A stretch of 64,000 bases of DNA from an uncultured Alphaproteobacteria bacterium (GTDB taxonomy: Bacteria > Pseudomonadota > Alphaproteobacteria > HIMB59 > GCA-002718135). This document shows positions 359 through 62,536 of this stretch, piece by piece (position 1 is the first letter of the stretch; every line of letters begins with the position of its first letter). The notes beneath the pieces are model-generated. The model saw only the letters and a list, made by a program, of their open reading frames with translations. It made no database searches and was not told where the DNA came from. The stretch covers positions 1 through 64,000 of the forward strand of contig CACIBE010000004.1 in the NCBI GenBank assembly GCA_902584805.1, read 5' to 3'. A program made the position numbers and the translations under genes.

Positions 359-1153
359 ATGACTAATTTAATTAGTCAGACATTTAAAGATGATAAAAAA
401 AAATTGGTAACATTTGTTACGGGTGGTGATCCTGATTTAGAAACTAGTTTAAAAATTATTAAGACAATAATTAATAATGGAGCTGATATTATAGAAATTG
501 GAATGCCTTTTTCTGATCCAATGGCTGATGGTCCAACAATTCAATTATCAAGTAATAGAGCTATAAACAAAGATATTAGTCTAGAAGATATCTTTTTTTT
601 AAGTTCTGAGGCAAAGAAAATAAAGAATGATCTACCTATTATATTAATGGGTTATTATAACTTGATTTTATATTTTGGTATTAAGAAGTTTGTCAAAAAA
701 TGCAAAGAAAATGGTGTAGATGGTTTGATCATTGTTGATTTGCAACCGGAAGAGGATGAAGATCTGATTAATGAACTAAATAAAAACCAAATAGATTTAA
801 TAAGATTAATTACTCCAACAACTGATGAGGGCAGACTTAAACTAATACTAAAAAATGCAAGTGGTTTTTTGTATTTTGTTAGTGTTATGGGCATAACAGG
901 TCAAAAATCTGCTGATCTTAATGAGCTTGAAAGATCAGTGAATTTTATCAAAAAGCACACAAATTTACCTATCGTTCCCGGATTTGGAATTAAAAACTCA
1001 ACTGATGTAAATAATATATGTAAGATAGCAAATGGGGCTGTTGTTGGTTCAAGTATTATTAAAATTATTGAAGAAAATTTAAATGATAAACAAAAAATGT
1101 TATCAGAGATTGATAAATTCTCAAAAGATCTAAAGAATGGAACTAAAGTATGA
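359..1153 (+). CDS. trpA: Tryptophan synthase alpha chain
   Basis: TrpA cleaves indole-3-glycerol phosphate to indole, which passes through a tunnel to TrpB. At 264 residues it has normal family length. The catalytic acid and base are present as Glu46 (IEIGMPFSDP) and Asp57 (MADGPT). The phosphate-binding loops PGFGIKN and VVGSSI are near the C-terminus. The ATG follows the trpB stop with no gap, and the gene ends in an ATGA overlap with accD. The trpBA-accD-folC order is typical of Alphaproteobacteria. Confidence 0.98.
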   Translation: MTNLISQTFKDDKKKLVTFVTGGDPDLETSLKIIKTIINNGADIIEIGMPFSDPMADGPTIQLSSNRAINKDISLEDIFFLSSEAKKIKNDLPIILMGYYNLILYFGIKKFVKKCKENGVDGLIIVDLQPEEDEDLINELNKNQIDLIRLITPTTDEGRLKLILKNASGFLYFVSVMGITGQKSADLNELERSVNFIKKHTNLPIVPGFGIKNSTDVNNICKIANGAVVGSSIIKIIEENLNDKQKMLSEIDKFSKDLKNGTKV

Positions 1154-1992
1154 ATTGGTTAACAAATTTTGTTAAACCTAAATTATCTTCACTTGTAAAA
1201 CGAAGAAGTGTCCCAGAAAAATTATGGAATAACTGTGTTTCATGTGGAAATATGATTCATCATAAAGACTTAAAAGAAAATTTATTTGTTTGTTTAACTT
1301 GTAATTATCATTTTAGGATGTCTGCAGAGGATAGGATAAAGCTTTTTTTTGAAAAAGGGAATTATACTGAAATTAATCCTGACAATATTTCAGATGATCC
1401 ACTTAAATTTACAGATAAGAAAAAATATAAAGACAGATTAAAAGAATATAGAAAAAAAACAAACAGAGATGATGCTTTCATACTTATTAAAGGTAAAATT
1501 AAAAACAAAGAAATCATTACTGGAATAATGAATTTTGAGTTTATGGGAGGATCTATGGGAAGAGCAGTAGGTGGAGCAATAGTTAAAGGTGCTAAAATTG
1601 CTATAGAAGAAAAATTACCTTATGTAATTATCACCTCATCTGGTGGAGCAAGAATGCAGGAAGGAATCGTTAGCTTAATGCAAATGCCCAGAACAATTGC
1701 TGCTGTTGATTTGTTAAATGAAAATAAGATACCTTACATAGTAATTTTAACTGAGCCTACCACTGGTGGAGTAACAGCTTCTTTCGCAATGTTAGGTGAT
1801 ATAACAATAGCAGAACAAGGTGCTACTATAGGATTTGCTGGTAAAAGAGTTATTCAAGATACTATTAGAGAAGAGTTGCCAATAGATTTTCAAAAAGCAG
1901 AATATCTAAAAGATCATGGCATGGTAGATATTGTTTCGCATAGAAAAGATCTTAAAGAAACATTATACAAAGTAATAGATCATATAAATTAA
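1150..1992 (+). CDS. accD: Acetyl-CoA carboxylase carboxyltransferase subunit beta
   Basis: This is the beta half of the carboxyltransferase that moves CO2 from biotin to acetyl-CoA to give malonyl-CoA, the first step of fatty-acid synthesis. The N-terminal four-cysteine zinc finger is complete (Cys29, Cys32, Cys48, Cys51). A crotonase-like carboxyltransferase core follows, with SSGGARMQEG and a GGVTASFAMLGD segment. At 280 residues it is slightly short but complete. It overlaps trpA by four bases (ATGA), indicating translational coupling. AccA, AccB and AccC are not in this window. Confidence 0.98.
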   Translation: MNWLTNFVKPKLSSLVKRRSVPEKLWNNCVSCGNMIHHKDLKENLFVCLTCNYHFRMSAEDRIKLFFEKGNYTEINPDNISDDPLKFTDKKKYKDRLKEYRKKTNRDDAFILIKGKIKNKEIITGIMNFEFMGGSMGRAVGGAIVKGAKIAIEEKLPYVIITSSGGARMQEGIVSLMQMPRTIAAVDLLNENKIPYIVILTEPTTGGVTASFAMLGDITIAEQGATIGFAGKRVIQDTIREELPIDFQKAEYLKDHGMVDIVSHRKDLKETLYKVIDHIN

Positions 1993-22746: not shown

Positions 22747-26291
<3,545 letters not shown>

Positions 26292-26294
26292 ATT

Positions 26295-27410
26295 TTAAAC
26301 TCTCATTGGCATTAATACATAAACCAGATTAGCATTCGAGTTTTCTTGAGCAGTTATTGGTGAAGTATTATCTTTTAAATTTATAGAAATTTCATTATCC
26401 TCTAAATTATTAACAATATCCATTATATATTTTGAGTTAAATCCTATTTCAATCTCATCTCCAGTATAGTTAATTTTTAAATCCTCAGACGCAGTACTAC
26501 TTTCATTATTTATAGTATTTAGGTTCAAAATATTTTCAAGTAATTTGAATTTAATTACTGGTGATTTTTCATTTGCTATTGTACTCACTCTATCAACTGC
26601 CGATAATAATTTTTCCCTACTTATATTTAAAATGTTGGTATTATTATTTGGAATTACTCTTTTGTAATCAGGAAAACTTCCATCAATTAATTTAGAAATA
26701 AATATTATATCATGTATAAAAAAAATTATCTTATTTGTACTAACAGATATTTCAATATCTTGATCAATTTCTGATAATAATTTTGATAATTCATAAATTG
26801 TTTTCTTCGGGATTATAACCCCTGAAACTTGATCAACATTTTCATCAATATAATGGCTAAACTTTGCTAATCTATGTCCATCTGTGCCTACTAATGTAAC
26901 AATACTTTTTTTATCTTCATTATTAACGCTAAAATACAATCCATTTAAAAAATATCTTGTTTCTTCATTTGAGATAGCAAACTTAGTTTTATCTATTAAT
27001 TTAAATAAAATTTTTGAATTTATTTTTATATTTATGGCAGTATTTTCTTGTTCTATAATTGGAAAATCTTCTTTTGGTAGTGATGCTAAAGTGAATCTTG
27101 AACCATCTGCTCTTAAAGTAAGAAGTTTTCCATTATTTGATATTATTTCTATAGATGCTTTATCGTCAATTTTTCTTACGATATCATATAATATTTGAGC
27201 ATTGATAGTTGTAGCACCATCTTCAGAGACAGTGCAATTAATTTTTTCAATTATTGAAATATCCATATCAGTTGAAGATAAAATTAATTGATTATTTTTT
27301 GCCTCGATTAAGATATTTGCTAAAATCGGAAGAGAGTTTTTCTTATCAACTATTCCTTGAAGATGTGAAAGAGATTTAAAAAAAGTTGAACGAGATATTT
27401 TAAATTTCAT
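26295..27410 (-). CDS. dnaN: DNA polymerase III beta subunit (sliding clamp)
   Basis: DnaN is the ring clamp that tethers the replicative polymerase. It is 371 residues with three repeated clamp folds. The start MKFKISRSTFFKSLSHLQGIV, split around SRSTF, and the C-terminal YVLMPMRV ending are typical, the latter forming part of the client-binding pocket. It sits 23 bases after dnaA and three before recF. Lysine and asparagine content is high, as throughout the window. Confidence 0.98.
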   Translation of the reverse strand: MKFKISRSTFFKSLSHLQGIVDKKNSLPILANILIEAKNNQLILSSTDMDISIIEKINCTVSEDGATTINAQILYDIVRKIDDKASIEIISNNGKLLTLRADGSRFTLASLPKEDFPIIEQENTAINIKINSKILFKLIDKTKFAISNEETRYFLNGLYFSVNNEDKKSIVTLVGTDGHRLAKFSHYIDENVDQVSGVIIPKKTIYELSKLLSEIDQDIEISVSTNKIIFFIHDIIFISKLIDGSFPDYKRVIPNNNTNILNISREKLLSAVDRVSTIANEKSPVIKFKLLENILNLNTINNESSTASEDLKINYTGDEIEIGFNSKYIMDIVNNLEDNEISINLKDNTSPITAQENSNANLVYVLMPMRV

Positions 27411-27433
27411 ACTAAAACATATGATAAAATGAA

Positions 27434-28828
27434 TTAAGAATCTATAAGCCTTTTTAGTAATTCCAAATCTTCATTAAAATTTACATCGGATAGTTTAAGT
27501 TCCTCAATTTTTTTAACAGCATGCATTACAGTTGTATGATCCCTGCCACCAAATTTCCTTCCAATTTCAGGCAAAGATCTTGATGTTATTGATTTAGCTA
27601 AATACATTGCTATTTGTCTAGGTCTTGCAACAGATCTGGATCTTCTTGGAGAATGCATATCAGTTATTCTAATATTAAAATGTTCTGCAACTTTCTTTTG
27701 AATTTCTTCAATAGTAATTTTTTTATTTGAAGATTTTAATAAGTCTTGAAGAACGAGTTGCGCGGTCTCAACTGTGATTGAGGTTCCTACTAGTGTAGCG
27801 TGTGCTACTAATCTATTCAAGGCACCTTCCATTTCTCTAACATTTGATATAATTCTATGTGATAGAAACTCTAAAACTTTTGGGGGAATTTCAACACCTC
27901 TTTTATGTGCTTTTTCAATCAATATCCCTAACCTTAATTCATAGGTTGTTGGATGAATATCTGCAACTAAGCCACATCCTAGTCTTGATTTTAATCTTTC
28001 TTGTACTCCATCGAGATCAGTTGGTGTTTTATCAGCAGATATAACTATTTGTTTATTTTGTTCAATTAGAGCATTAAAAGTGTGAAAAAATTCTTCTTGA
28101 GTATTATCTTTACCACTTATAAATTGAACATCATCAATCATAAGAACATCTATTGATCTAAATTGCTCTTTAAATGCTGAGGTATCTTTATATCTTAATG
28201 CTCTTACAAATTGATACATAAATTTTTCGGCAGAAAGATAAATTACTTTTCTTTCAGGTTGTTGTTGTTTTATCTTCCATCCTATTGCGTGCATAAGATG
28301 AGTTTTCCCTAAACCAACACCTCCGCATAAGAATAGTGGATTAAAAGTAATTTTATCTGCTTCTGATACCCTTTGAGATGCTGCAAATGCAAGTTCATTA
28401 GGCTTCCCAACAACAAAATTTTCAAATGTAAATCTTGGATCTAGAGGTGCACCAAACTCGTTAGGATAAGTTGAAGATTGGTTAGATCTTAGATCCATTG
28501 TAGATTTCCAATGATTATCATTGCTTTTAATAGTTCTTGTAGTGCCTGGAACTATTCTTCCACCTAACGGCTTAACGACAAATTTAATTACTTCAATTTT
28601 TTCAATATAATTTTTTGCTTCTGATTTTATTTTATCTGAATAATTATTTACTATCCAATCTCTTAAAAATTTTGTTGGAACTGAAAATGTAATTGTATTC
28701 TCTTCCAAAGAGACAAAATTTAAATGCTTCAACCAGTTATTGAAAGCAGAATCACCAACATTTTTTTTAAGATTTTTTTTAAAAGATAACCATGTACTGT
28801 CGTCAAATATAGTAGATGTATTATCCAT
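27434..28828 (-). CDS. dnaA: Chromosomal replication initiator DnaA
   Basis: DnaA is the AAA+ protein that melts oriC. It has 464 residues: an N-terminal DnaB-contact domain (WLSFKKNLKKN...), a variable linker, an AAA+ core with Walker A GGVGLGKTH and Walker B VLMIDDVQF, and the DNA-binding domain with GGRDHTTVMHAVKKIEEL. The SD-like GGGGG lies just before ATG. A -10-like TATAAA at 28853-28848 gives a leader of about 15 bases. I see no convincing DnaA boxes in the 146 bases upstream. Confidence 0.99.
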   Translation of the reverse strand: MDNTSTIFDDSTWLSFKKNLKKNVGDSAFNNWLKHLNFVSLEENTITFSVPTKFLRDWIVNNYSDKIKSEAKNYIEKIEVIKFVVKPLGGRIVPGTTRTIKSNDNHWKSTMDLRSNQSSTYPNEFGAPLDPRFTFENFVVGKPNELAFAASQRVSEADKITFNPLFLCGGVGLGKTHLMHAIGWKIKQQQPERKVIYLSAEKFMYQFVRALRYKDTSAFKEQFRSIDVLMIDDVQFISGKDNTQEEFFHTFNALIEQNKQIVISADKTPTDLDGVQERLKSRLGCGLVADIHPTTYELRLGILIEKAHKRGVEIPPKVLEFLSHRIISNVREMEGALNRLVAHATLVGTSITVETAQLVLQDLLKSSNKKITIEEIQKKVAEHFNIRITDMHSPRRSRSVARPRQIAMYLAKSITSRSLPEIGRKFGGRDHTTVMHAVKKIEELKLSDVNFNEDLELLKRLIDS

Positions 28829-28956
28829 TTTCCCCCAACAATACGATTTTATAACTTATTAAGTTTTACGCAAAAAATCTAAAGTCGTAAAATTTAATCA
28901 CCAAATTAATTTACTTAATCAACACCCTTTAAGTATTTTTAGCAAGAAGAAAAGTG

Positions 28957-28984
28957 AAAAAAATAAAAAAAAATTTATTTTTTT
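28957..28984 (-). repeat. Perfect A/T inverted repeat at the rpsT stop, possible weak terminator
   Basis: Two 11-base arms (AAAAAAATAAA at 28957-28967 and TTTATTTTTTT at 28974-28984) flank a six-base loop. They overlap the rpsT stop codon. With only A-T pairs, the stem is weak, but it is symmetrical and followed by more T on the minus strand. The remainder of the rpsT-dnaA gap (28829-28956) holds the dnaA promoter region and nothing else I can identify. Confidence 0.35.
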
Positions 28985-29235
28985 GAAATTTGTTTTGATA
29001 AAGAGGATAACTTTCTGGATATGTATTCTTTTTTAAATATACCTCTTTTTGAAGCTCTAGCCATTATTGAGTTGACATTGCTGAAAGATTTTTGGATTTC
29101 TTCCTGATTTTTTGCTTCTACTGATGATTTAAATTTATTTAGAGCGTTTCTAAATTTAGATAGGTATTGAGAATTAACAGTATTTCTAGTTTTATTCTGT
29201 CTAGATCTTTTTTTTGCGGAAGCATGATTAGCCAT
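28975..29235 (-). CDS. rpsT: 30S ribosomal protein S20
   Basis: This is an 86-residue basic protein starting MANHASAKKRSRQNKTRN, the signature S20 N-terminus, with SRKLSSLSKQI at the end. It binds the 5' domain of 16S rRNA early in 30S assembly. It lies between mutM (52 bases upstream) and dnaA (146 bases downstream), the usual alphaproteobacterial mutM-rpsT-dnaA order. A run of A/T inverted repeat begins at its stop codon. Confidence 0.98.
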   Translation of the reverse strand: MANHASAKKRSRQNKTRNTVNSQYLSKFRNALNKFKSSVEAKNQEEIQKSFSNVNSIMARASKRGIFKKEYISRKLSSLSKQISKK

Positions 29236-29287
29236 ATGCGTGCTATAAATTCAAAATAAATTAAGTCAATTAATATTTAATATAGAA

Positions 29288-30106
29288 TTACTTGTTATTT
29301 TGAAGTTTTGGACAATAAAAAGTAGATCTTCCGTATTGAACGATCTTTTTAACCTTATCTCCACCTATTTTTTTTCCTTCTTTATTATAAACCTGAAAAT
29401 TTGACTGAAAGTTTCCTAATGTACCATCAGTAGACCTATAATCTCGTATACTAGATCCTCCATATTTAATTGCTTTCTTTAAAATTTTTCTAATGGACTT
29501 AATTAGTTTCATAATGAGACTAATTTCTAATTCCTTACCCAAAGTAAGTGGTGAAATTTTAGAATCAAATAGAATTTCTGATGCATAGATATTTCCAATA
29601 CCAGCAATTAATTTTTGATTTAGTAAAATCTGCTTTATTGGGACCTCAGATTTTGAAATTTTTTCAAATATCATTTGTGCTGTAAGATTTGGACTCAGTG
29701 CATCTACACCCAAACTAAATATATACTTTTGTTTTTGTAGATCTTTTGTTTTAATTATGTCTATAAATCCAAATTTCCTTGGATCATGATAAACAAGTAT
29801 CATTCCACTTAAAAAGTACATGACAAAATGATCATGTTTTATTCGTTTGTAGCTTTTATTAACAGTTTTTAATCTTCCTGACATTCCTAGATGTATTACT
29901 AGAGAATAATATGTATCTAAATCTATGATTATGAACTTTGCTATACGTCTGAGGTTGGATATCTTGGAGTAACGTAGTATACTAATTATATTATTTGGAA
30001 TTTTAAAACGAAGTTTTGAAGTATGAATTTTAACATTAGATATTTTTTGATTAAATATTACACTAAGTCCTTTAACTGTAGTTTCAACTTCAGGTAATTC
30101 TGGCAT
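29288..30106 (-). CDS. mutM: Formamidopyrimidine-DNA glycosylase with degenerate zinc finger
   Basis: MutM (Fpg) removes 8-oxoguanine and formamidopyrimidines from DNA. The N-terminus MPELPEVETT supplies the catalytic proline and glutamate, and the helix-two-turn-helix region has AGIGNIYASEILF. At 272 residues it is full length, but the C-terminal zinc finger is altered. The first CxxC is gone (KEGKKIGGDKVKKIV) and the second is YCPKLQ, so one cysteine remains of four. The arginine of the beta-hairpin (GRSTFY) is kept. The protein may use a zincless finger. Its start codon is one base from that of ubiE. Confidence 0.94.
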   Translation of the reverse strand: MPELPEVETTVKGLSVIFNQKISNVKIHTSKLRFKIPNNIISILRYSKISNLRRIAKFIIIDLDTYYSLVIHLGMSGRLKTVNKSYKRIKHDHFVMYFLSGMILVYHDPRKFGFIDIIKTKDLQKQKYIFSLGVDALSPNLTAQMIFEKISKSEVPIKQILLNQKLIAGIGNIYASEILFDSKISPLTLGKELEISLIMKLIKSIRKILKKAIKYGGSSIRDYRSTDGTLGNFQSNFQVYNKEGKKIGGDKVKKIVQYGRSTFYCPKLQNNK

Positions 30107-30107
30107 A

Positions 30108-30839
30108 ATGAAAAAAGATTATAATTTTGGTTATACAAAAGTAAATTCAAAACAAAAGACTAAACTTGTTCAGAATGTATTTTCAAGCGTAGCTCCAAAC
30201 TACGATATTATGAATGATTTAATGAGTTTAGGTATGCATCGTTTATGGAAAAAAAGATTTGTAGAAACTGTGAATCTAAAAGAAAATGAAATTATCTTGG
30301 ATGTTGGTTCTGGTTCTGGTGATATTGCTAGCGAAATTTTAAAAGAAAATTTATCAACCAGTCTTTATCTTTTAGATCTAAATGAAGAAATGTTATTAGA
30401 AGGAAGAAAAAGATTAAGAAAAGAAAAAAAAATAAAATATTTTATTGGTAATGCTGAAAAGTTAAATTTTGAAAATAATTTTTTTGATAAATATACTATT
30501 TCTTTCTGCTTAAGAAATGTGACAGAGTATTTATTATCTATAAAAGAGGCTTACAGAGTTCTTAAACCAGGTGGTAAATATTGTTGCCTAGAATTTAGTA
30601 CACCTAAATCATCTTTGGTATCAAGTTCATATAAAATTTACAAATCAAAGATTTTACCTCTGTTAGGAGAAATAGTTGCTAAAGATAAAAATGCTTATAA
30701 ATATTTGAGTGAAAGTATTGATTTGTTTCCATCACAAGAAGAACTTAGCAAAAATCTACGTGATTGCGGATTTACTAAAGTCGAAACTATTAATCTATTT
30801 AATGGAATTGTAGCAATACATACTGGCTATAAACTGTAA
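30108..30839 (+). CDS. ubiE: Ubiquinone/menaquinone biosynthesis C-methyltransferase
   Basis: UbiE is a SAM-dependent methyltransferase that methylates the benzoquinol ring in ubiquinone synthesis. It is 243 residues. The early FGYTKV, VFSSVAPNYDIMNDLMSLG and HRLWKKRF match the family. The SAM site is LDVGSGSGD, and CLRNVTEYL and KPGGKYCCLEFS follow. The start ATG is one base from the mutM start on the other strand. It overlaps coaBC by one base (TAATG). ubiB, the usual next gene, is missing. Confidence 0.97.
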   Translation: MKKDYNFGYTKVNSKQKTKLVQNVFSSVAPNYDIMNDLMSLGMHRLWKKRFVETVNLKENEIILDVGSGSGDIASEILKENLSTSLYLLDLNEEMLLEGRKRLRKEKKIKYFIGNAEKLNFENNFFDKYTISFCLRNVTEYLLSIKEAYRVLKPGGKYCCLEFSTPKSSLVSSSYKIYKSKILPLLGEIVAKDKNAYKYLSESIDLFPSQEELSKNLRDCGFTKVETINLFNGIVAIHTGYKL

Positions 30840-32008
30840 TGAATAAAATTTTATTAATAATAACTGGCTCTATTGCTGCATCTCGATGTAAAGAAATTAT
30901 TGCTTTGCTAAATATTAATGAAATTAAAATTAGCTGCATTGTAACTAAAGAGGCAAAAAAATATGTAAAAATATCAGATATAAAAAAATTACTTAAAAAT
31001 AGAATATTTACTGATGAAGATGAGAAAAAAAATAAGATGCTTCATATTAATTTATCAAGAGATAATGATATAATAGTTATGTGTCCAGCAACAGCTAATT
31101 CTATTGCTAAATTTGCTAATGGATATGGAGATAATTTAGCTTCTAATACGTTGCTTGCTTCAAATAAAAAAATTTTGTTTGTCCCCGCAATGAATAGTTT
31201 TATGTGGCATAATAAAATTAATCAAAAAAATGTGAGATTATTAAAAGATAGCGGTCATGAGTTTATTGGTCCTACAGTTGGAAATCTAAAGTGTGGAGAA
31301 TTTGGTTTAGGTAGAATTGATAACTCAAAAAATATAGTAAATAGAATTTTAAACAGACTAGAAAATATTAATTTGTTAAAAAATAAAAAATGCCTAGTAA
31401 CTGCAGGACCAACAATTGAAATGATTGATCCAGTTAGGTTTATTTCAAATCAATCTTCTGGAAAACAAGGCTATGAAATTGCTTCACAATTAGTTTTATA
31501 TGGAGCAGATGTAACCTTGATATCTGGACCAACAAATTTAGATCCCCCACCAAATTTAAAATTTATTCAAATAAAATCAGCAAACGAAATGTATCAAAAA
31601 ATTAGAAAAATTTCTAAAATTGATATAGGAATTTTTACTGCTGCAGTATCTGATTTCAAAAATAAAAATATAAATAAATCCAAGATTAAAAAAAATGAAA
31701 AATTAAATATTAGTCTTTATAAGAATATTGATATTTTAGAAAAAATTGGAAAAAGCAAAACTCAAAGGCCTAAATTTTTAGTTGGTTTTGCTGCAGAAAC
31801 GGGCAGCATTAATAATGCCAAAAAAAAATTAGTTGATAAAAAATGTGATATGATGGTTTACAATAAAATCGATAGTAAAAATAAAGTTTTTGGTTCCGAT
31901 TATAATCGGATATCAATAGTTACAAAAAACCAGATAAAAAAATTTAAGAAAATGACAAAGGTAAATTGTGCAAAGCAAATTATAAAACAAATTTATAATT
32001 CCATATAG
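30839..32008 (+). CDS. coaBC: Bifunctional phosphopantothenoylcysteine decarboxylase/synthetase
   Basis: This is a two-step coenzyme A enzyme. CoaC (about 1-180) is the FMN decarboxylase: TGSIAASR, the catalytic His in MLHINLS, PAMNSFMW and the reactive cysteine in GNLKCGEFGLGRI. CoaB (about 185-389) begins LVTAGPTIEMIDPVRF and has SNQSSGKQGYEIA and TAAVSDF. The 389-residue length is normal. It follows ubiE in a TAATG overlap. dut, which often comes next in relatives, is absent. Confidence 0.96.
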   Translation: MNKILLIITGSIAASRCKEIIALLNINEIKISCIVTKEAKKYVKISDIKKLLKNRIFTDEDEKKNKMLHINLSRDNDIIVMCPATANSIAKFANGYGDNLASNTLLASNKKILFVPAMNSFMWHNKINQKNVRLLKDSGHEFIGPTVGNLKCGEFGLGRIDNSKNIVNRILNRLENINLLKNKKCLVTAGPTIEMIDPVRFISNQSSGKQGYEIASQLVLYGADVTLISGPTNLDPPPNLKFIQIKSANEMYQKIRKISKIDIGIFTAAVSDFKNKNINKSKIKKNEKLNISLYKNIDILEKIGKSKTQRPKFLVGFAAETGSINNAKKKLVDKKCDMMVYNKIDSKNKVFGSDYNRISIVTKNQIKKFKKMTKVNCAKQIIKQIYNSI

Positions 32009-32012
32009 AATT

Positions 32013-32765
32013 ATGAATAATTACTCTGAAGAAGAATATAAAATTTTCAGTAGATTATTTATTTTAAAAGAATTTTCTGAAGAAAACCTAAAAAAATTAT
32101 CAAATATAAAAATTGGTATTGTGGGTATGGGAGGTATAGGATGTCCTTTAAGTCAATATTTAGTCAACTCTGGAATAAAAGAATTGTTAATAGTAGATGG
32201 AGACATGGTTGAAAAAAGTAATCTTAATAGACAAATTTTGTTTAATTTAAATGATATTGGAAGAAAAAAGGTTGATGTAGCTAAAAATAAATTACAATTA
32301 ATCAATACTGAATGTAAAATTCATACTATTGATGAAAATATAAATTCTTTAAATTTAAATTCTTTAAAAGAATGTTCTATAATTGTTGATGCAACTGATG
32401 ATTGGGTAAGTTCTAAACTATTAAATGAATATTGTCTTAAAAACTCAATCAATTTTTTATATTCCTCTGCATTAAGACACGATTTACAAATAATTCTTTT
32501 CAATAATTCAAATAGAAATAATCACCTATGTTTAAATTGTATATTTCCTAATAAAGATGATGTTAATCTTCCCAGATGTGATGTGGTAGGTATTTCAGGC
32601 ATTTCTGCAGGGTTAGCAGGTTTGTTTGCTGCTCAAAAAATAATTAATTTCTATTTAAATTTAAAGGATGAAACTAATATAATGACAATTTCTGATGGAA
32701 AAAAATTAAGCATTGATAATATTCTTATTAAAAGTAAACATGATTGTTATTTAAAATCAGTTTAA
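32013..32765 (+). CDS. ThiF/MoeB-family adenylyltransferase (E1-like)
   Basis: This 250-residue protein has the E1 ATP-binding loop GMGGIGCPLSQYL, VDGDMVEKSNLNRQ and DATDDW. MoeB and ThiF adenylate the C-terminal glycine of MoaD or ThiS for sulfur transfer. The catalytic cysteine position is in PRCDVVGISG. One zinc pair is present (CLNC), but the C-terminal pair is reduced to a single cysteine (HDCYLKS). The position near coaBC matches the moeB/hesA gene of other Alphaproteobacteria. The partner ubiquitin-like protein is not in the window, so I leave the symbol empty. Confidence 0.88.
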   Translation: MNNYSEEEYKIFSRLFILKEFSEENLKKLSNIKIGIVGMGGIGCPLSQYLVNSGIKELLIVDGDMVEKSNLNRQILFNLNDIGRKKVDVAKNKLQLINTECKIHTIDENINSLNLNSLKECSIIVDATDDWVSSKLLNEYCLKNSINFLYSSALRHDLQIILFNNSNRNNHLCLNCIFPNKDDVNLPRCDVVGISGISAGLAGLFAAQKIINFYLNLKDETNIMTISDGKKLSIDNILIKSKHDCYLKSV

Positions 32766-55535: not shown

Positions 55536-56219
55536 TTACGAGCCAAAACAATATCCTGCTGATCTCACGGTTCTTATAAAATCTTCTTTTACGTCATTAT
55601 TTATGGCCTTTCGTAGTCTTCTTATATGAACATCAACTGTTCGAGGTTCTACATGGGCCTCATTTTTCCAAACATGATTAAGTAATTGTTCACGGCTAAA
55701 GACACGACCAATATTTTCCATAAAGAAAGCTAATAAATTAAATTCTGTTGGACCAAGATGAAGAGTTTCGCCATCTCGTGATGCCGAGTGAGATACAAGA
55801 TCAATTACTATTCCTTTATAAGTTAAAACTTCATCAACAAACATTGGTCTAATTCGTCGAAGAACAGCTTTTACTCTTGCCACTAATTCGTTAACCGAAA
55901 AAGGTTTTGTTATGTAATCATCTGCTCCAGTTTCTAAGCCGCGAAGTTTATCTTCTTCTTCACCTTTTGCTGTTAACATTATGATAGGAATATTCTTATG
56001 TTCTTTATGTTTTCTAATTCTACGACAAAGTTCAATTCCTGATAACTCTGGTAACATCCAATCAAGAATAATTATGTCAGGTGGTTTATATAATATTTTT
56101 TCTAAAGCAGTTTCACCATCCGTTGCAGTATCTATTTTATATCCTTCTTTATTAAAATTAAATTTAAGAAGTTCTAATAATGCTTCTTCATCTTCTACGA
56201 TAAGCATTTTAAGTTTCAT
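55536..56219 (-). CDS. phoB: Phosphate regulon response regulator PhoB
   Basis: This 227-residue OmpR-type regulator has a receiver with Asp53 (ILDWMLPELSG) and Lys in YITKPFS. Its winged helix has VEPRTVDVHIRRLRKAI. PhoB activates genes with Pho boxes when phosphate is low. It is the last gene of the pst-phoU-phoB run, 41 bases after phoU. That gap holds a perfect TATAAT on the minus strand (56253-56248), so phoB may also have its own promoter. Confidence 0.97.
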   Translation of the reverse strand: MKLKMLIVEDEEALLELLKFNFNKEGYKIDTATDGETALEKILYKPPDIIILDWMLPELSGIELCRRIRKHKEHKNIPIIMLTAKGEEEDKLRGLETGADDYITKPFSVNELVARVKAVLRRIRPMFVDEVLTYKGIVIDLVSHSASRDGETLHLGPTEFNLLAFFMENIGRVFSREQLLNHVWKNEAHVEPRTVDVHIRRLRKAINNDVKEDFIRTVRSAGYCFGS

Positions 56220-56260
56220 GAAACTCTTCTATTAAATTTTTGTGTCAATTATATTACAAT

Positions 56261-56971
56261 TTATTTTTTTATTGGTAAGATTGCTTCCCAAGTTGGGTTA
56301 GGATTTGTATCAATTAATGGTTCGCCTGATACAGCATAATAGATATCTTCCGCTATATTTTGAACATAATCACCAATTCTTTCTAGATCTTTAACCATAT
56401 ATAAAAGATTAGTGCATGAAGCTATTCTCTTTGGATCTTCCATCATGTAGGTTAATAATTGTCTTAGAATACCAAGATATTCTTCATCTATTTGTCTATC
56501 AGCTAACCATACTTTTTTAGCCTCAGTATCGGAAAAATTTAAAAAAGCCTTTATTACATGATCTATCATTTTATGAACAAGCTCTCCCATTCTAATAATA
56601 TCTCTTGTAGGTTTCTCAGGTAAAACTAATTCAGTTAAAGCTGCTCTTTTTGCTATATTTGTTGCGTGGTCTCCTAATCTCTCTAAATCTTTATTCATTT
56701 TGATAGCAGAGAAAATTGTTCGCAAATCTGTTGCCATTGGTTGGCGCTTTCCTAAAATTTCAACTAAGCTTTGATCAAGTTTGTTATAAGCATCGTCAAT
56801 TAAATCATCATTTAAAATTACTTTTTCTGCCAGCTCGGTATCTTGGTTTTTTAAGGCATTAAGTGAGTCTTTTAATTGATTTTCAACTAAAGTTCCCATC
56901 TCTAAAATTTTACTATTAATGTCTTTGATCTCCTCATCATATGATTTGACAATATGTTTGTCTTGTTCCAT
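56261..56971 (-). CDS. phoU: Phosphate transport regulator PhoU
   Basis: PhoU couples the Pst transporter to PhoR and restrains the response when phosphate is plentiful. It is 236 residues of two three-helix bundles with repeated metal-site motifs (DLRTIFSAIKMNKDLERLGDH, LLYMVKDLERIGDYVQ). It overlaps pstB by one base. With PhoR seeming to lack membrane spans, PhoU may be the main link between PstB and PhoR. Confidence 0.97.
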   Translation of the reverse strand: MEQDKHIVKSYDEEIKDINSKILEMGTLVENQLKDSLNALKNQDTELAEKVILNDDLIDDAYNKLDQSLVEILGKRQPMATDLRTIFSAIKMNKDLERLGDHATNIAKRAALTELVLPEKPTRDIIRMGELVHKMIDHVIKAFLNFSDTEAKKVWLADRQIDEEYLGILRQLLTYMMEDPKRIASCTNLLYMVKDLERIGDYVQNIAEDIYYAVSGEPLIDTNPNPTWEAILPIKK

Positions 56972-57732
56972 TAACCAAACCTCCCTGTTATGTAATCTTG
57001 TGTTTTTGAATTATCAGGATTAGTAAATATTTTTTTTGTATCACCTGTTTCAATTAATTCCCCTAGGTGAAAAAAACTAGTTTTTTGCGATACCCTTGCT
57101 GCTTGCTGCATAGAATGTGTCACTATAACAATTGTATAGTTTAGTCTCAATTCATCAATCAATTCTTCAATTATGGCAGTTGCTATAGGATCAAGAGCGG
57201 AACATGGTTCATCCATTAAAATTATTTCAGGATTTACAGCAATCGCTCTTGCAATACATAATCTTTGTTGTTGACCCCCTGATAAGCTTGTTCCAGGTTC
57301 ATTTAATCGATCTTTTACTTCGTTAAATAGACCTGCCTTTTTTAATGATGAATGTACAATTTCTTCTAATTCATTTTTTGAGTCAACTAAACCATGTATA
57401 GTTGGGCCGTAAGCAACATTATCAAAAATAGATTTAGGAAAAGGATTTGGTTTTTGAAATACCATTCCAATTTTAGATCTTAGACTTACAACATCGGTTT
57501 TTTCACTAATAATTTCTTCGTTATCTACTTTAATTGATCCAGATACTTTACATATTTCGATTAAATCGTTCATTCTGTTTATACATCTTAAGAAAGTTGA
57601 TTTACCACATCCTGAAGGACCGATTAATGCCGTAACTTCTTTCTCCTTGATATCCATTGAGATTCCAAAAAGAGCTTGTTTGGATCCATAATATACATCT
57701 ACACCATTTGCCAATATTTTAGAGTTACTCAT
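56971..57732 (-). CDS. pstB: Phosphate ABC transporter ATPase PstB
   Basis: This 253-residue ATPase has Walker [10 protein letters not shown], the Q-loop FQKPNPFP, the signature [15 protein letters not shown], Walker [13 protein letters not shown] and the H-loop VTHSMQQA. It powers high-affinity phosphate import through PstC and PstA. Three bases separate it from pstA, and it overlaps phoU by one. Confidence 0.99.
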
Positions 57733-57735
57733 GTT

Positions 57736-59016
57736 TTACCACTTCCTTTCAAATCTATTTCTTAAGAACACTGCAATGGCGTTCATCATAAACAAAAATA
57801 TTAAAATTACCATTATGGCTGCAGCTGATTTTTCCTGAAAACCTCTTTCTGCACTTTCCACCCAAAGATATATTTGAACAGGAAGTGCTGCTGAAGGTTC
57901 TGTTAAACCAGTTGGAATATTGGGAATAAATGCAATCATACCAATCATTATAAGTGGTGCTGTTTCACCTAATGCTTGTGCTAATCCAATAATAGTCCCT
58001 GTTAAAGTCCCTGGTAGTGCAAGGGGTACGACATGATGAAATACCGCTTGTGTTTTTGTTGCTCCAACTGCAAGCGCTCCTTCTTTAATTGAAGGAGGAA
58101 CAGCTTTCAATGAAGCTCGGCAGGCAATAATAATAGTTGGTAACGTCATTAATGCTAACACGGACCCTCCAACTAACGGTGTGCTCCTTGGAAGACCAAA
58201 AACATTAAGCAATACACCTAACCCAAGTAATCCAAAAACTATTGATGGGACTGCTGCAAGATTTGAAATATTTACTTCTATTAATTCAGTTATTCTATTT
58301 TTTGGAGCAAATTCCTCAAGATAAACAGACGCTCCTATAGCAATTGGAAAAGATAAAATAAAAACAGTAAAAAGAGTAAATAATGATCCCATAAATGAAC
58401 CAGCTACACCAGCAATTTCAGGATGCCTTGAATCTGCTTTAGTAAAAAAGAAATTATTAAAAACTTGTTTAACTCTATTTTCTTCAACTAACTGATCTAC
58501 GTAACTTAATTGAATATCATTTAATTTTCTTCTATCTTCTGGCACATCTCTTCTTGAATTACCTTTTAATAGTTGATCCACATCACTATGGGCAGTTACC
58601 CAAATTTGTTGCTTTGTATTAATGACTTCAGGATTTTCTAAGAAGTAGTCTTTAATTTCGTTATCTACATTTATAGAAAATAATTTTTTTATTAATTTAA
58701 TATCTGATTTTGAGAGATCTGGGAAAAAATTTTCAATAGCCTGTTTTTTAACTCTAAAAAATTTTCCTTTTTCCATCTCTTCATCTGAAGAGTCAGGTGT
58801 TAGTTTTAAGACCTCTTGATTATAATCAACTTCTAGGAGAACAATTGTTTTTTGAAAAGCAGTGTATCCTTTTGAAAATATTGTATACAAAAGGAAAACT
58901 AAAACTGCTAAAGATAAACACATAGCTGTAAAGCCATAATACTTAAATCGCATATCTTCTAAACTTCTCTTTTTTCTCAAAGAAACAATTTTTTCTTTAG
59001 CAACGGAATTATTCAT
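57736..59016 (-). CDS. pstA: Phosphate ABC transporter permease PstA
   Basis: This is a 426-residue permease, about 130 longer than the enteric form. The added part is a periplasmic region (about 65-200) between TM1 and the core, as in other Alphaproteobacteria. The core has SFPIAIGASVYLEEFAP and the coupling motif RASLKAVPPSIKEGALAVGA. It overlaps pstC by eight bases. The extension could contact PstS or the regulators, but its role is unknown. Confidence 0.96.
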   Translation of the reverse strand: MNNSVAKEKIVSLRKKRSLEDMRFKYYGFTAMCLSLAVLVFLLYTIFSKGYTAFQKTIVLLEVDYNQEVLKLTPDSSDEEMEKGKFFRVKKQAIENFFPDLSKSDIKLIKKLFSINVDNEIKDYFLENPEVINTKQQIWVTAHSDVDQLLKGNSRRDVPEDRRKLNDIQLSYVDQLVEENRVKQVFNNFFFTKADSRHPEIAGVAGSFMGSLFTLFTVFILSFPIAIGASVYLEEFAPKNRITELIEVNISNLAAVPSIVFGLLGLGVLLNVFGLPRSTPLVGGSVLALMTLPTIIIACRASLKAVPPSIKEGALAVGATKTQAVFHHVVPLALPGTLTGTIIGLAQALGETAPLIMIGMIAFIPNIPTGLTEPSAALPVQIYLWVESAERGFQEKSAAAIMVILIFLFMMNAIAVFLRNRFERKW

Positions 59017-60382
59017 AACGCTCCCTGTATCTCTTTACAATTTGTAGAGCTATAATGTTAAGAAATAATGTAATAACAAATAAAACTAATCCTAAAGCAA
59101 ATGCTGATAATGTTCTTGGGTTATCAAATTCTTGATCACCTATTAAGGCCACAACAATTTGAACTGTAACTGTTGTTACATTTTCAAAAGGATTACCTGT
59201 AAGATTGGGAGCTGTACCTGCTGCAACTACAACAATCATAGTCTCCCCTATCGCTCTGGATATTGCTAACAAAAATGCTCCTACAATTCCAGGTAAAGCT
59301 GCTGGTAAAATTACTTTTTTAATAGTTTCTGCTTTATTAGCGCCAATACCAAATGATCCTTCCCTTAGACTTTGCGGGACAGAGTTTATTACATCATCAG
59401 ATAAAGAAGAAATAAAAGGAATAATCATAACCCCCATTACCATACCAGCAGCAAGGGCGCTTGTTGGTGAAGCATCAATTCCAATTGATTGTCCAAATGC
59501 TTTTACGAAAGGCGCAACACTAACAAAGGCAAAGAACCCATAGACTATTGTTGGTATCCCTGCCAAAATTTCGAGAAGAGGTTTAACTATTTTTCTAACT
59601 CTTTGACTTGCGTATTCTGCTAAGTAAATTGCTGTTAATAATCCAAGAGGTGCCGCAACACACATAGCTACTACCATTACTAAAAATGTCCCAGCAAATA
59701 TTGGTACTGCACCAAAGGATCCCTCTGCAGCTGTTTGACCTTCTCTAATTGGAATAAATGGATACCACTCAGTACTAAATAAAAATTCAAATATTGATAC
59801 TTCTGCAAAAAAGCGAAGGCTTTCAAATATTAGTGAAAAAACTATTCCTATTGTAGTAAAAATAGCAACAGATGAACAAAATATAAGTATATATTGTATA
59901 TATCTTTCAATTGCATGTTGAGCATGAAATTCAGGTTTTAATTTACGTGAAGCGTATAGGGCTCCAAGTAACATTATAATGATTATTGAGAGATAAAAAG
60001 CTATTTGACTTATTTGTCTTAAGGAAGAATATTGAGATGCGGCATTAATTATTTCTACAGATTTACCATCGGCAAAAGAAGGGTTATTAGCAACATTTCT
60101 AATCTCTGCTAACAATAAACCTTCGTTGTAAGCTGCGCCCTCAATAAATTCAAAGTTACTAATAACTATGTTTTGAATAATCTGTTCTTGAAAAATAGCC
60201 CATGAAAAATAAACAATTAGTGCAGGAAACAAACACCACATTAAAACGTATTGTGCGTAATAATTGGGAAGAGATTTGCTTTTCGTACCTTGTTTTTTAG
60301 AGTTTAATTTAATTCTTGATCTTCCGTATATAAAGGATGAGAAAATTCCGACTGCAATTAAAACTAAAGACCAAAAGAACAT
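59009..60382 (-). CDS. pstC: Phosphate ABC transporter permease PstC
   Basis: This is a 457-residue permease, also with an enlarged N-terminal half (first span at 1-18, others near 48-68 and 130-150) compared with the enteric 319. The permease core has APLGLLTAIYLAEYA and the coupling loop SVPQSLREGSFGIGANKAE. A hairpin plus T run between pstS and this gene probably lowers its expression relative to pstS. Confidence 0.96.
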   Translation of the reverse strand: MFFWSLVLIAVGIFSSFIYGRSRIKLNSKKQGTKSKSLPNYYAQYVLMWCLFPALIVYFSWAIFQEQIIQNIVISNFEFIEGAAYNEGLLLAEIRNVANNPSFADGKSVEIINAASQYSSLRQISQIAFYLSIIIIMLLGALYASRKLKPEFHAQHAIERYIQYILIFCSSVAIFTTIGIVFSLIFESLRFFAEVSIFEFLFSTEWYPFIPIREGQTAAEGSFGAVPIFAGTFLVMVVAMCVAAPLGLLTAIYLAEYASQRVRKIVKPLLEILAGIPTIVYGFFAFVSVAPFVKAFGQSIGIDASPTSALAAGMVMGVMIIPFISSLSDDVINSVPQSLREGSFGIGANKAETIKKVILPAALPGIVGAFLLAISRAIGETMIVVVAAGTAPNLTGNPFENVTTVTVQIVVALIGDQEFDNPRTLSAFALGLVLFVITLFLNIIALQIVKRYRERYE

Positions 60383-60397
60383 TTATAACTTACTATT

Positions 60398-60423
60398 AAA
60401 AAAAAGGGGGCTTGTATGCCCCC
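60398..60423 (-). terminator. Hairpin terminator/attenuator between pstS and pstC
   Basis: On the minus strand GGGGGC, loop ATACAA and GCCCCC form a six-pair all-GC stem, striking in this AT-rich DNA, followed by eight T. It lies 15 bases before pstC. Partial termination here would give more PstS than permease, a common need for binding-protein transporters. Confidence 0.85.
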
Positions 60424-60445
60424 ATTTTATAAAAATTAAAGATTT

Positions 60446-61441
60446 TTATTTATAATTTGTTTGATTAGAAATAGCATCAAGAACAGCTGCTCTATCCGCA
60501 GGACTTAGTTGAACAAGTCCAGCATCTAGTAAGTAACCTTCTGTTGCTTCTTCACTTACAAACTCATTAACATAATCCATTAAACCAGGAATAACGCCAA
60601 TGTGTGCTTTTTTGATGTAGAAGAATAAAGGTCTTGCTATTGGATATGAATAATCTTGGATGCCTTCCATTGAGATTTCAACACCATTAATCATTGATGC
60701 TTTTACTTTATCAGAGTTATTAGATACAAAACTGTAACCAAAAATACCAAATGCACCTTGTTCTTTGGTTATATGCTCAACATACAGTTCATCATTTTCA
60801 CCACCTTCGATAACGTGGCCATCTTCACGATATGCTTGACAATCACCATCAGCAACTAACATATCTTTAACACAACCCTTTTTCATTACAAGTGAGTCAA
60901 ATGCATCTCTTGTTCCAGAAGTTGGAGGAGGTGCCATAATAGAAATTTCAACTTTTGGTAATCTTTTATCTATTTCATACCAAGTTGTTGGAGCGTCTGC
61001 ATTATCTCTAGCCATTGCCTGCCAGATTTCTTCTTTACTTAAATCAATGCCACCTTTCATTGTAGCACCGTTGGTATATTTCCATTCATAATCTGCAGCG
61101 TATGCAAAAGCTATACCATCATTACCAACTCTAACTTCGATGATATCGGTTACACCGCCATCTTGGCAAAGTTTGAATTCTTTATCTTTTTGTGCTCTTG
61201 AAGAGTTAGTGATATCTGGATGTTCAACTCCAACACCTGCACAAAATAATTTGTGTCCTCCACCAGAACCAGTTGATTCAATTACGGGTGCTTTCATTCC
61301 TTGAGATGCCATTTTTTCAGCAACTAAAGTAGCGAAAGGATAAACTGTAGAAGATCCTACAATTGAAATATAGTCTCTTGCTGAAACTGAAGTAGTTCCA
61401 AATAAAGCAAGGACAGCAATTAATTTAATTATATTTTTCAT
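60446..61441 (-). CDS. pstS: Phosphate-binding periplasmic protein PstS
   Basis: This is the high-affinity phosphate receptor. A signal peptide (hydrophobic IIKLIAVLALFG, likely cleavage after SVSA) leads to ISIVGSSTVYPFA and ESTGSGGGHKLFC, the phosphate-binding serines and glycines. I choose the ATG at 61441 (331 residues) because GAGG stands six bases before it. An ATG four codons upstream (61453) has no ribosome site. It is separated from phoR by about 40 bases. Confidence 0.96.
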   Translation of the reverse strand: MKNIIKLIAVLALFGTTSVSARDYISIVGSSTVYPFATLVAEKMASQGMKAPVIESTGSGGGHKLFCAGVGVEHPDITNSSRAQKDKEFKLCQDGGVTDIIEVRVGNDGIAFAYAADYEWKYTNGATMKGGIDLSKEEIWQAMARDNADAPTTWYEIDKRLPKVEISIMAPPPTSGTRDAFDSLVMKKGCVKDMLVADGDCQAYREDGHVIEGGENDELYVEHITKEQGAFGIFGYSFVSNNSDKVKASMINGVEISMEGIQDYSYPIARPLFFYIKKAHIGVIPGLMDYVNEFVSEEATEGYLLDAGLVQLSPADRAAVLDAISNQTNYK

Positions 61442-61475
61442 ATTTAGCCTCATTTAAAATAAGGTATTACTAAAT

Positions 61476-61500
61476 ATTATATGTTAAGGATTTATTACAG
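61476..61500 (-). promoter_or_regulatory. Candidate pstS promoter with half Pho box
   Basis: On the minus strand a perfect TATAAT lies at 61481-61476. CTGTAAT (61500-61494, six of seven to the Pho half-site CTGTCAT) is upstream, followed after four bases by a poor second half-site CCTTAAC. It overlaps the end of phoR. Promoter and PhoB control are both tentative. Confidence 0.3.
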
Positions 61501-62536
61501 TTTGCTGAATTACAGGTAAAGAAATAGTAAATGTTGAACCCTTATCCACCTTGCTTTTTATTGATAATTTACCATTATGCCTATTAGTTATATGTTTAAC
61601 AATAGATAAACCCAAACCGGTACCGCCTTGATTTCGAGATCTATTTTTATCTACTCTATAAAATCTTTCAGTAAGTCTAGTTAAATGCTCTTTTGATATA
61701 CCTTCTCCGTTATCTATAAAACTTATTTGGCAAAAGGCGTTATTGTCATTAATGACTCCCTCAATCTCAATACCAATAGTAGAATTTTCTTTACTATATT
61801 TTATTGCATTATCGGTTAAGTTTAAAAAAACTTGAATTAGAGCATCTTTGTTTGCTGATATTGTAGACTTATCAAAATCATCCTTGATTTGAACTTCAAT
61901 TTTTTTTGCCATTAACTTGTTTTGTAAATTATCAACTACGCCATCAATTAATTGCCTTATATTCGCTTCTTGAAATTCTATAGGTTTATCTTCAGTCTCA
62001 TATTTACTTAGTAATAATAAATCTTCGACTAGTCTAGTCATACGCCAAGCCTGATCTTCCATTGTATCTAAAAATTTACCAACCGTTTTGTCTTTGTTCT
62101 TATCTTCATTGAGTGAATTTTTAATTGTTTCAACATAGCCTAGAATTGAGGAAAGAGGAGTTCTCAATTCATGGCTTACATTAGCCACAAAATCTGTTCG
62201 CATTTGTTCGTAGTTTTTAAGAAGACTTTGATCATTTAGTGATATTAATAATTCTTCATAATCTTTTTCAACAAATATTAAGTCAGCAATAAAATACATA
62301 TCACTAAAATTAGATGGGGTGAATTCAAACTTAAAATCTTCTTTCTCTCTAAAGGCTTTATCAATAAAAGTATTTAACTCTGTTGATCTAATAATATTAT
62401 TGAGATCTCTTCCTTCATCGATAAATAAAAATTTTTGTTTAGCTGCATTATTGTAAAAAATTATTTCCTTATTTGTATCAATTGCAATAATAATCGAAGG
62501 TATCTTACTTAGACTTAGTCTTAATTTTTTTTTCAT
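61484..62536 (-). CDS. phoR: Phosphate sensor histidine kinase PhoR, soluble form
   Basis: This is a 350-residue kinase with a PAS-like domain (about 10-100), H-box FVANVSHELRTPLSS with His122, and ATPase boxes ending GTGLGLSIVKHI. PhoR phosphorylates PhoB when phosphate is scarce. The usual N-terminal membrane spans (about 80 residues in enteric PhoR) are absent. Residues 1-20 contain only a short hydrophobic strand of the PAS fold. The start lies inside the SET gene (32-base overlap), leaving no room for a longer protein. It would have to sense the Pst complex through PhoU in the cytoplasm. Confidence 0.93.
   Translation of the reverse strand: MKKKLRLSLSKIPSIIIAIDTNKEIIFYNNAAKQKFLFIDEGRDLNNIIRSTELNTFIDKAFREKEDFKFEFTPSNFSDMYFIADLIFVEKDYEELLISLNDQSLLKNYEQMRTDFVANVSHELRTPLSSILGYVETIKNSLNEDKNKDKTVGKFLDTMEDQAWRMTRLVEDLLLLSKYETEDKPIEFQEANIRQLIDGVVDNLQNKLMAKKIEVQIKDDFDKSTISANKDALIQVFLNLTDNAIKYSKENSTIGIEIEGVINDNNAFCQISFIDNGEGISKEHLTRLTERFYRVDKNRSRNQGGTGLGLSIVKHITNRHNGKLSIKSKVDKGSTFTISLPVIQQTVINP

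What the first reader, a model, noticed from the sequence alone, without database searches (positions are those of the whole stretch)
29288..29420. MutM with a lost zinc finger
Three of the four zinc-binding cysteines of Fpg are missing (GKKIGGDKVKK replaces the first pair, YCPKLQ the second), yet the hairpin arginine and the catalytic N-terminus are intact. This resembles the zincless finger of NEIL1 and some viral Nei proteins. It may save zinc in the nutrient-poor sea or reflect relaxed selection on oxidative repair.
Basis: partly seen in the sequence, partly recalled or inferred. Interest (0 to 1): 0.5.

Follow-up and report, generated by a model that had tools for sequence, protein, structure and literature searches.

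The report
Zinc-free MutM across marine bacterial order
Small ocean bacteria of one order carry a DNA-repair enzyme, MutM, whose zinc-binding finger has been rebuilt without zinc ligands while the rest of the enzyme stays conserved, a natural test of whether that metal is needed.

Summary
The intact 272-aa MutM/Fpg gene at 29288-30106 (-) lacks three of the four finger cysteines (Cys1->I247, Cys2 without counterpart, Cys3 kept as C265, Cys4->L268). It is not a local accident: none of 77 relatives' fingers read, from two families and seven genera of the order, has the Cys4 site. Elsewhere in the class, 109 of 110 sampled fingers keep at least three Cys. Genome size of one member points, indirectly, to the marine order HIMB59/AEGEAN-169. 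The gene sits in its usual alphaproteobacterial place and the order is one clade in the gene tree, so a single loss at its stem is simplest. Catalytic residues, hairpin Arg260 and the capping-loop length are invariant in 74 of 74 full-length proteins. The finger is under stronger purifying selection (dN/dS 0.07) than the rest (0.145). AlphaFold predicts a confident hairpin on a bacterial Fpg fold. Best reading: a working 8-oxoG/Fapy glycosylase whose finger packs hydrophobically instead of around zinc. General zinc saving is disfavoured (IleRS and AccD keep zinc ribbons); decay is contradicted. Zincless fingers are known from NEIL1, plant/fungal Fpg and mimivirus Nei1, so this is a new variant of a known kind. 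No biochemistry was possible.

The parts
29288..30106 (-). mutM (fpg), 272 aa, formamidopyrimidine-DNA glycosylase without the zinc ligands in its finger
29291..29392 (-). C-terminal zincless finger, residues 239-272
   Evidence: alignments and per-position counts
29303..29332 (-). hairpin turn and second strand G259-L268, with invariant R260, former Cys3 (C265) and former Cys4 position (L268)
   Evidence: R260 in 74 of 74; strands 253-257 and 260-264 in the model
29405..29461 (-). alphaF-beta9/10 (8-oxoG capping) loop region, residues 216-234
   Evidence: span from GG to Y240 is 25 aa in 74 of 74 order proteins and 76 of 76 outgroup rows; the loop's identity is from papers seen
30092..30103 (-). 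catalytic N-terminus P2-E3-L4-P5
   Evidence: P2 and E3 in 74 of 74
28975..29235 (-). rpsT (ribosomal protein S20), conserved downstream neighbour
   Evidence: PF01649; synteny
27434..28828 (-). dnaA, conserved downstream neighbour (named by reading the translation)
   Evidence: synteny
30108..30839 (+). ubiE, divergent upstream neighbour
   Evidence: PF01209; synteny

Best explanation
It is the vertically inherited MutM (Fpg) of one alphaproteobacterial order, most likely HIMB59/AEGEAN-169, whose zinc ribbon became a metal-free (zincless) beta-hairpin before the two sampled families split. Inferred mechanism: the positions of Cys1 and Cys4 now carry hydrophobic residues which, with V252, F263 and P266, hold the hairpin in the shape that zinc used to fix, so that invariant R260 can still clamp the phosphates beside the flipped base. 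P2 attacks C1', with E3, K57 and N172 in their usual places. The capping loop of bacterial length predicts that, unlike plant Fpg, it still removes 8-oxoG as well as Fapy bases, together with MutY and a MutT-like protein. Shown: sequence state, order-wide conservation, selection, synteny, predicted fold. Inferred: activity, absence of bound metal, hydrophobic packing.
For: None of 77 relatives' fingers has the Cys4 site. The order is one clade (100/99) in a 105-row tree, and the four outgroup rows that join it (L078, L124, L169, L183) have four finger Cys. CoaBC-UbiE-MutM-S20-DnaA in 60 of 70 order loci; the UbiE-MutM-S20-DnaA core also in 36 of 80 named loci outside the order. P2, E3, K57, M75, D108, R110, F112, K158, N172 and R260 in 74 of 74; loop span 25 aa in 74 of 74; Cys1 position hydrophobic in 74 of 74, Cys4 position L, I or F in 73 of 74. 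dN/dS: finger 0.070, rest 0.145. Model pLDDT 94-96 for residues 241-270; best match E. coli Fpg 1k82, Z 33.5, 1.5 A over 257 residues. MutY-like, Nth-like and MutT-like genes in the same genome.
Against: No enzyme assay or metal analysis. Single Cys replacements in the E. coli Fpg finger abolish DNA binding (stated in PMC4176347), so compensation has to be assumed. AlphaFold knows zinc-type Fpg and may draw the hairpin whether or not it is stable; apart from the window protein no zincless row was in its alignment. The MutT-like protein is below its family cut-off (83.7 of 97.9 bits). Two relatives, G002 and G124, have broken mutM frames, and G124 also has GRPTF for GRSTF. The taxon name is indirect.
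Confidence: 0.8

Rival explanations
1. General zinc saving: the lineage shed zinc sites across its proteome because its seawater is zinc-poor, and MutM is one case.
For: Small-genome marine lineage; a ThiF-family protein in the window also seems to lack one Cys of its second pair (read by eye, relatives not checked).
Against: IleRS keeps CxxC...CxxC in 9 of 9 genomes of the order that were read, this one included. AccD in the window has a zinc ribbon above the Pfam cut-off. PMC10308909 reports an iron/zinc chelator in AEGEAN-169 (passage). No proteome-wide count was made.
Confidence: 0.1
2. Decay: MutM is losing function under relaxed selection in a streamlined genome.
For: Loss of the zinc site; 2 of 77 relatives with broken frames; 20 of 121 genomes without a match, all below 90% complete.
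Against: Catalytic residues invariant in 74 of 74; median dN/dS 0.136, finger 0.070; gene in 14 of 14 genomes of at least 90% completeness.
Confidence: 0.03
3. Redox hardening: replacing thiols made the finger resistant to oxidants and electrophiles that strip zinc from Fpg/Nei fingers, an adaptation to sunlit water.
For: 2-thioxanthine oxidises the finger Cys and inactivates zinc-type enzymes, while zincless hNEIL1 resists (PMC4176347). In family f2, 13 of 14 fingers read have no Cys at all.
Against: C265 is kept in 59 of 74 proteins. A Pelagibacteraceae record (L078) keeps four Cys. No measurement.
Confidence: 0.2
4. Substrate shift: the protein is now a Fapy/hydantoin enzyme like plant Fpg and no longer removes 8-oxoG.
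For: Plant Fpg, also zincless, has only minor 8-oxoG activity (PMC10573277).
Against: The plant loss is attributed to a short capping loop (PMC10573277, PMC6264785); here the loop has the length seen in bacterial relatives.
Confidence: 0.1

Closest known systems
Bacterial Fpg/MutM (E. coli 1k82, G. stearothermophilus 1r2y, L. lactis 1pm5)
   Same: Full-length homology, catalytic residues, H2TH, loop length, hairpin Arg; Z 33.5 to 1k82
   Different: No Cys4 zinc site
Zincless plant Fpg (Arabidopsis 3twk, 3twl, 3twm)
   Same: Finger hairpin without zinc, by the papers seen; Z 25.9-27.2
   Different: Short capping loop and minor 8-oxoG activity (PMC10573277); the window's protein keeps the bacterial loop length and is closer to bacterial Fpg
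Zincless finger of NEIL1 and mimivirus Nei1 (3a42, 3a45, 3vk7)
   Same: Metal-free finger said to superimpose on zinc fingers (PMC4176347); MvNei1 Z 25.3-25.8
   Different: Nei-type enzymes of animals and a virus; this one is a bacterial MutM in its usual gene neighbourhood
Alphaproteobacterial MutM with shifted or reduced finger ligands (CxxCxC...C, CxC, three-Cys forms)
   Same: Same gene; shows that the finger's ligand set varies in this class
   Different: 109 of 110 class fingers and 80 of 80 named hits read keep at least three Cys; only G186 (L249) has one, elsewhere in the tree

Membership tests
Bacterial Fpg/MutM (BaFpg1-type) | N-terminal MPELPE with catalytic P2 and E3 | tested here: met
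   74 of 74; NF002211 and TIGR00577 above cut-off
Bacterial Fpg/MutM (BaFpg1-type) | Lys57, intercalation residues M75/R110/F112, H2TH Asn172 (roles recalled) | tested here: met
   invariant in 74 of 74
Bacterial Fpg/MutM (BaFpg1-type) | 8-oxoG capping loop of bacterial length | tested here: met
   25-aa span in 74 of 74 order proteins and 76 of 76 outgroup rows
Bacterial Fpg/MutM (BaFpg1-type) | Four-Cys zinc finger | tested here: not met
   one Cys here, 0-2 in 74 of 74; PF06827 not found, and in the order MutM gets only partial matches below its cut-off, best 18.5 of 21.3 bits. PMC3188539 calls these Cys perfectly conserved in the clade
Bacterial Fpg/MutM (BaFpg1-type) | 8-oxoG/Fapy glycosylase and AP lyase activity | not testable with these tools
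   needs an assay
Zincless-finger Fpg/Nei (works like NEIL1, plant Fpg, MvNei1) | No zinc ligand set, hairpin and Arg retained | tested here: met
   sequence and model
Zincless-finger Fpg/Nei (works like NEIL1, plant Fpg, MvNei1) | No metal in the purified protein | not testable with these tools
   needs ICP-MS or a PAR assay
HIMB59/AEGEAN-169 order | Same order as strain HIMB59 | tested here: inconclusive

The most novel reading that the evidence does not exclude
A bacterial MutM lineage has solved the finger problem without metal while keeping full 8-oxoG specificity. It would be the first capping-loop-bearing zincless Fpg, showing that zinc is dispensable for 8-oxoG recognition, and it became fixed because a thiol-poor finger resists oxidation in sunlit surface water.
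Probability: 0.25. Interest if true: 0.55.

Novelty: new variant of a known kind. Interest (0 to 1): 0.4.

Why it matters
A paper seen here calls the four Cys perfectly conserved in bacterial Fpg clades (PMC3188539), and another says finger integrity is essential for DNA binding (PMC4176347). An order without them, in a marine lineage reported at up to 6% of cells in the South Pacific Gyre (AEGEAN169; start of abstract of PMC11366302), is a natural experiment on what the zinc does, free of the capping-loop change that confounds the plant enzyme. It also predicts a bacterial MutM resistant to finger poisons such as 2-thioxanthine.

Tried and rejected
Decay: rejected on selection and conservation. 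Assembly error: rejected, because the state recurs in other genomes. Replacement by a plant- or virus-type gene: rejected, because the gene lies in its usual neighbourhood and the model and tree fit bacterial MutM. Hidden replacement ligands: Cys plus His in the finger total 0-3, and apart from C265 (59 of 74) no such residue holds its place (His is at 244 in 8 of 74). Human NEIL1 is not among the 50 entries listed by VIA-align, which says nothing about its fold.

A finger-only profile against 349 genomes drawn from the phylum gave 121 bits for the window and at most 75.7 for any other listed match; no other member of the order was among the listed rows. Of the 29 other loci it returned, 27 fingers were read (26 with four Cys, one with three); for L285 and L296 my script caught a wrong ORF.

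Ribosomal L31 and L36 were located but not compared, so they are not evidence. The family of G186 holds only that genome, so this second case could not be checked in relatives. Foldseek 'pdb' was not run. A search for the exact HIMB59 length in papers found nothing about it, and PMC3264578 does not mention mutM or DNA repair. The genome-contig scan listed no record of the window's own order (its note says near records may be left out).

Full report
WHAT IS THERE. The gene at 29288-30106 (-) encodes a 272-aa MutM/Fpg that passes the curated cut-offs of NF002211 and TIGR00577 and carries the Pfam N-terminal and H2TH domains, with no hit to the finger family PF06827. Aligned with solved enzymes and with 42 zinc-type relatives, three of the four finger Cys are gone: Cys1 is I247, Cys2 has no counterpart, Cys3 is C265, Cys4 is L268. 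The hairpin Arg is R260.

HOW WIDESPREAD. A search of 121 genomes of the same genus and order, this one included, found MutM in 101, and in 14 of 14 of at least 90% completeness. I fetched the genes of 69 of the 100 relatives with a match, and of 8 more from five further genera of the same family: 77 in all. 76 fingers were read in frame: 59 have one Cys, 15 none, 2 two. The 77th, L036 of G002, has a broken frame; its finger in another frame is also without the Cys4 site. G124 is split as well and reads GRPTF. In family f2, 13 of 14 fingers read have no Cys and one (L057, G106) has one.

OUTGROUPS. All 80 named hits kept by the genome scan lie outside the order by identity (33-42%). Their fingers hold four Cys in 73, five in 4 and three in 3, in C-x2-C, C-x4-C, CxC or CxxCxC...C arrangements. 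From a draw of 289 genomes of the class (234 with a match) I read 110 fingers: 30 loci from a re-search of 79 lower-scoring genomes and 80 fetched stretches, of which 40 are also lower-scoring ones and 40 were picked mainly for small genome size. In the printed stretches 94 have four or more Cys, 15 have three and one (L249, G186) has one. This is not a random sample and it overlaps the named set (for instance contig lengths of L243 and L072 agree). G186 lies elsewhere in the tree (L319), so it looks like an independent loss; its family holds no other genome. In the phylum draw of 349 genomes the zincless-finger profile set the window apart (121 bits, next 75.7).

ORTHOLOGY AND TIMING. CoaBC-UbiE-MutM-S20-DnaA is complete in 60 of 70 order loci, and the UbiE-MutM-S20-DnaA core is in 36 of 80 named loci outside the order (27 without and 9 with CoaBC). 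In a 105-row tree the 29 order proteins are one clade (100/99), joined by four rows with four finger Cys. The bootstrap had not settled and many AT-rich rows have an odd make-up, so I claim the single loss, not the sister group.

TAXON. A same-order genome is one contig of 1,410,127 bases; strain HIMB59 is listed at 1410 kb (PMC3815206, table passage). AEGEAN-169 is described as synonymous with SAR11 subclade V (HIMB59) (PMC10308909, title, start of abstract and passages). I take the window to be of this lineage; the support is indirect.

SELECTION AND FUNCTION. Over 559 pairs among 34 close genes of the genus (Nei-Gojobori, dS 0.05-1.2), median dN/dS is 0.136; pooled values are 0.070 for residues 239-272 and 0.145 for the rest. 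P2, E3, K57, M75, D108, R110, F112, K158, N172 and R260 are invariant in 74 of 74 full-length in-frame proteins, the window's included. The Cys1 position is hydrophobic in 74 of 74, the Cys4 position L, I or F in 73 of 74, residue 252 V or I in 74 of 74, and the GG-to-Y loop span is 25 aa in 74 of 74 as in 76 of 76 outgroup rows. AlphaFold2 gives mean pLDDT 92.6 and 94-96 for residues 241-270, with hairpin strands 253-257 and 260-264; it is low at 221-230 (56, in the capping loop) and for the last two residues (60). The best solved match is E. coli Fpg 1k82 (Z 33.5, 1.5 A over 257); plant Fpg (25.9-27.2) and MvNei1 (25.3-25.8) come lower. The model is not independent proof of stability.

PARTNERS. 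The genome holds two HhH-GPD proteins: a 349-aa one with a MutY-like iron-sulfur motif and a 216-aa Nth-like one (named by motif, recalled). A MutT-like protein scores 83.7 bits, below the 97.9 cut-off. A GO system is therefore likely, not shown.

WHY ZINC WAS LOST. General zinc saving is disfavoured: IleRS keeps four finger Cys in 9 of 9 genomes read, chosen from 150 searched, and AccD in the window (1150-1992) has a zinc ribbon above cut-off. Against that, a ThiF-family protein in the window seems to lack one Cys (by eye), and no proteome-wide count was made. Decay is contradicted by selection. Resistance to thiol oxidation is possible and untested. The finger's ligand set varies through the class, so a route through reduced-ligand forms ending C-x-x-x-Q (as in L089 and L099) is plausible; this is inference.

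LITERATURE. PMC3188539 (passages): four perfectly conserved Cys in the bacterial Fpg clades, zincless fingers in plants/fungi, NEIL1 and mimivirus, with separate origins argued for the plant/fungal and NEIL1 fingers. My survey shows that the first statement is too strict for Alphaproteobacteria in general. PMC4176347 (passages): replacing finger Cys in E. coli Fpg abolishes DNA binding; zinc and zincless fingers superimpose; zincless hNEIL1 resists 2-thioxanthine. PMC10573277 and PMC6264785 (passages): poor 8-oxoG activity of eukaryotic Fpg goes with a short capping loop. PMC9266487 (passages): review of the finger. Four searches of the held open-access library listed no paper whose title or abstract start reports a bacterial zincless MutM; I saw listings and passages only, so absence from print is not shown.

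VERDICT. A real, conserved, order-wide zincless MutM: a new variant of a known kind, best explained as a working enzyme with a metal-free finger.

Noticed in passing
32013-32765 (+): ThiF-family protein (PF00899) has a CLNC pair but ends KHDCYLKSV, so one Cys of the second pair that I recall for this family is missing; relatives not checked.
   Followed up: partly
1150-1992 (+): AccD keeps a four-Cys zinc ribbon (PF17848, 29.2 bits, cut-off 24.5), so structural zinc is still used here.
   Followed up: yes
L319 (G186:C118), MutM; finger also in L249: A nearly zincless MutM finger (one Cys, GDPSPADPQTP in place of the first pair) in another family of the class.
   Followed up: partly
L036 (G002) and L162/L164 (G124): mutM frame broken in two relatives, in G002 at an A-run just before the finger; real or assembly error not decided.
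   Followed up: partly
22747-32008: gyrB, recF, dnaN, dnaA, rpsT, mutM, ubiE and coaBC lie together, an origin-type neighbourhood; named by reading translations except where Pfam was run.
   Followed up: partly
55536-62536: A pst/phoB/phoU/phoR-like phosphate uptake and sensing cluster, by reading translations only.
   Followed up: no
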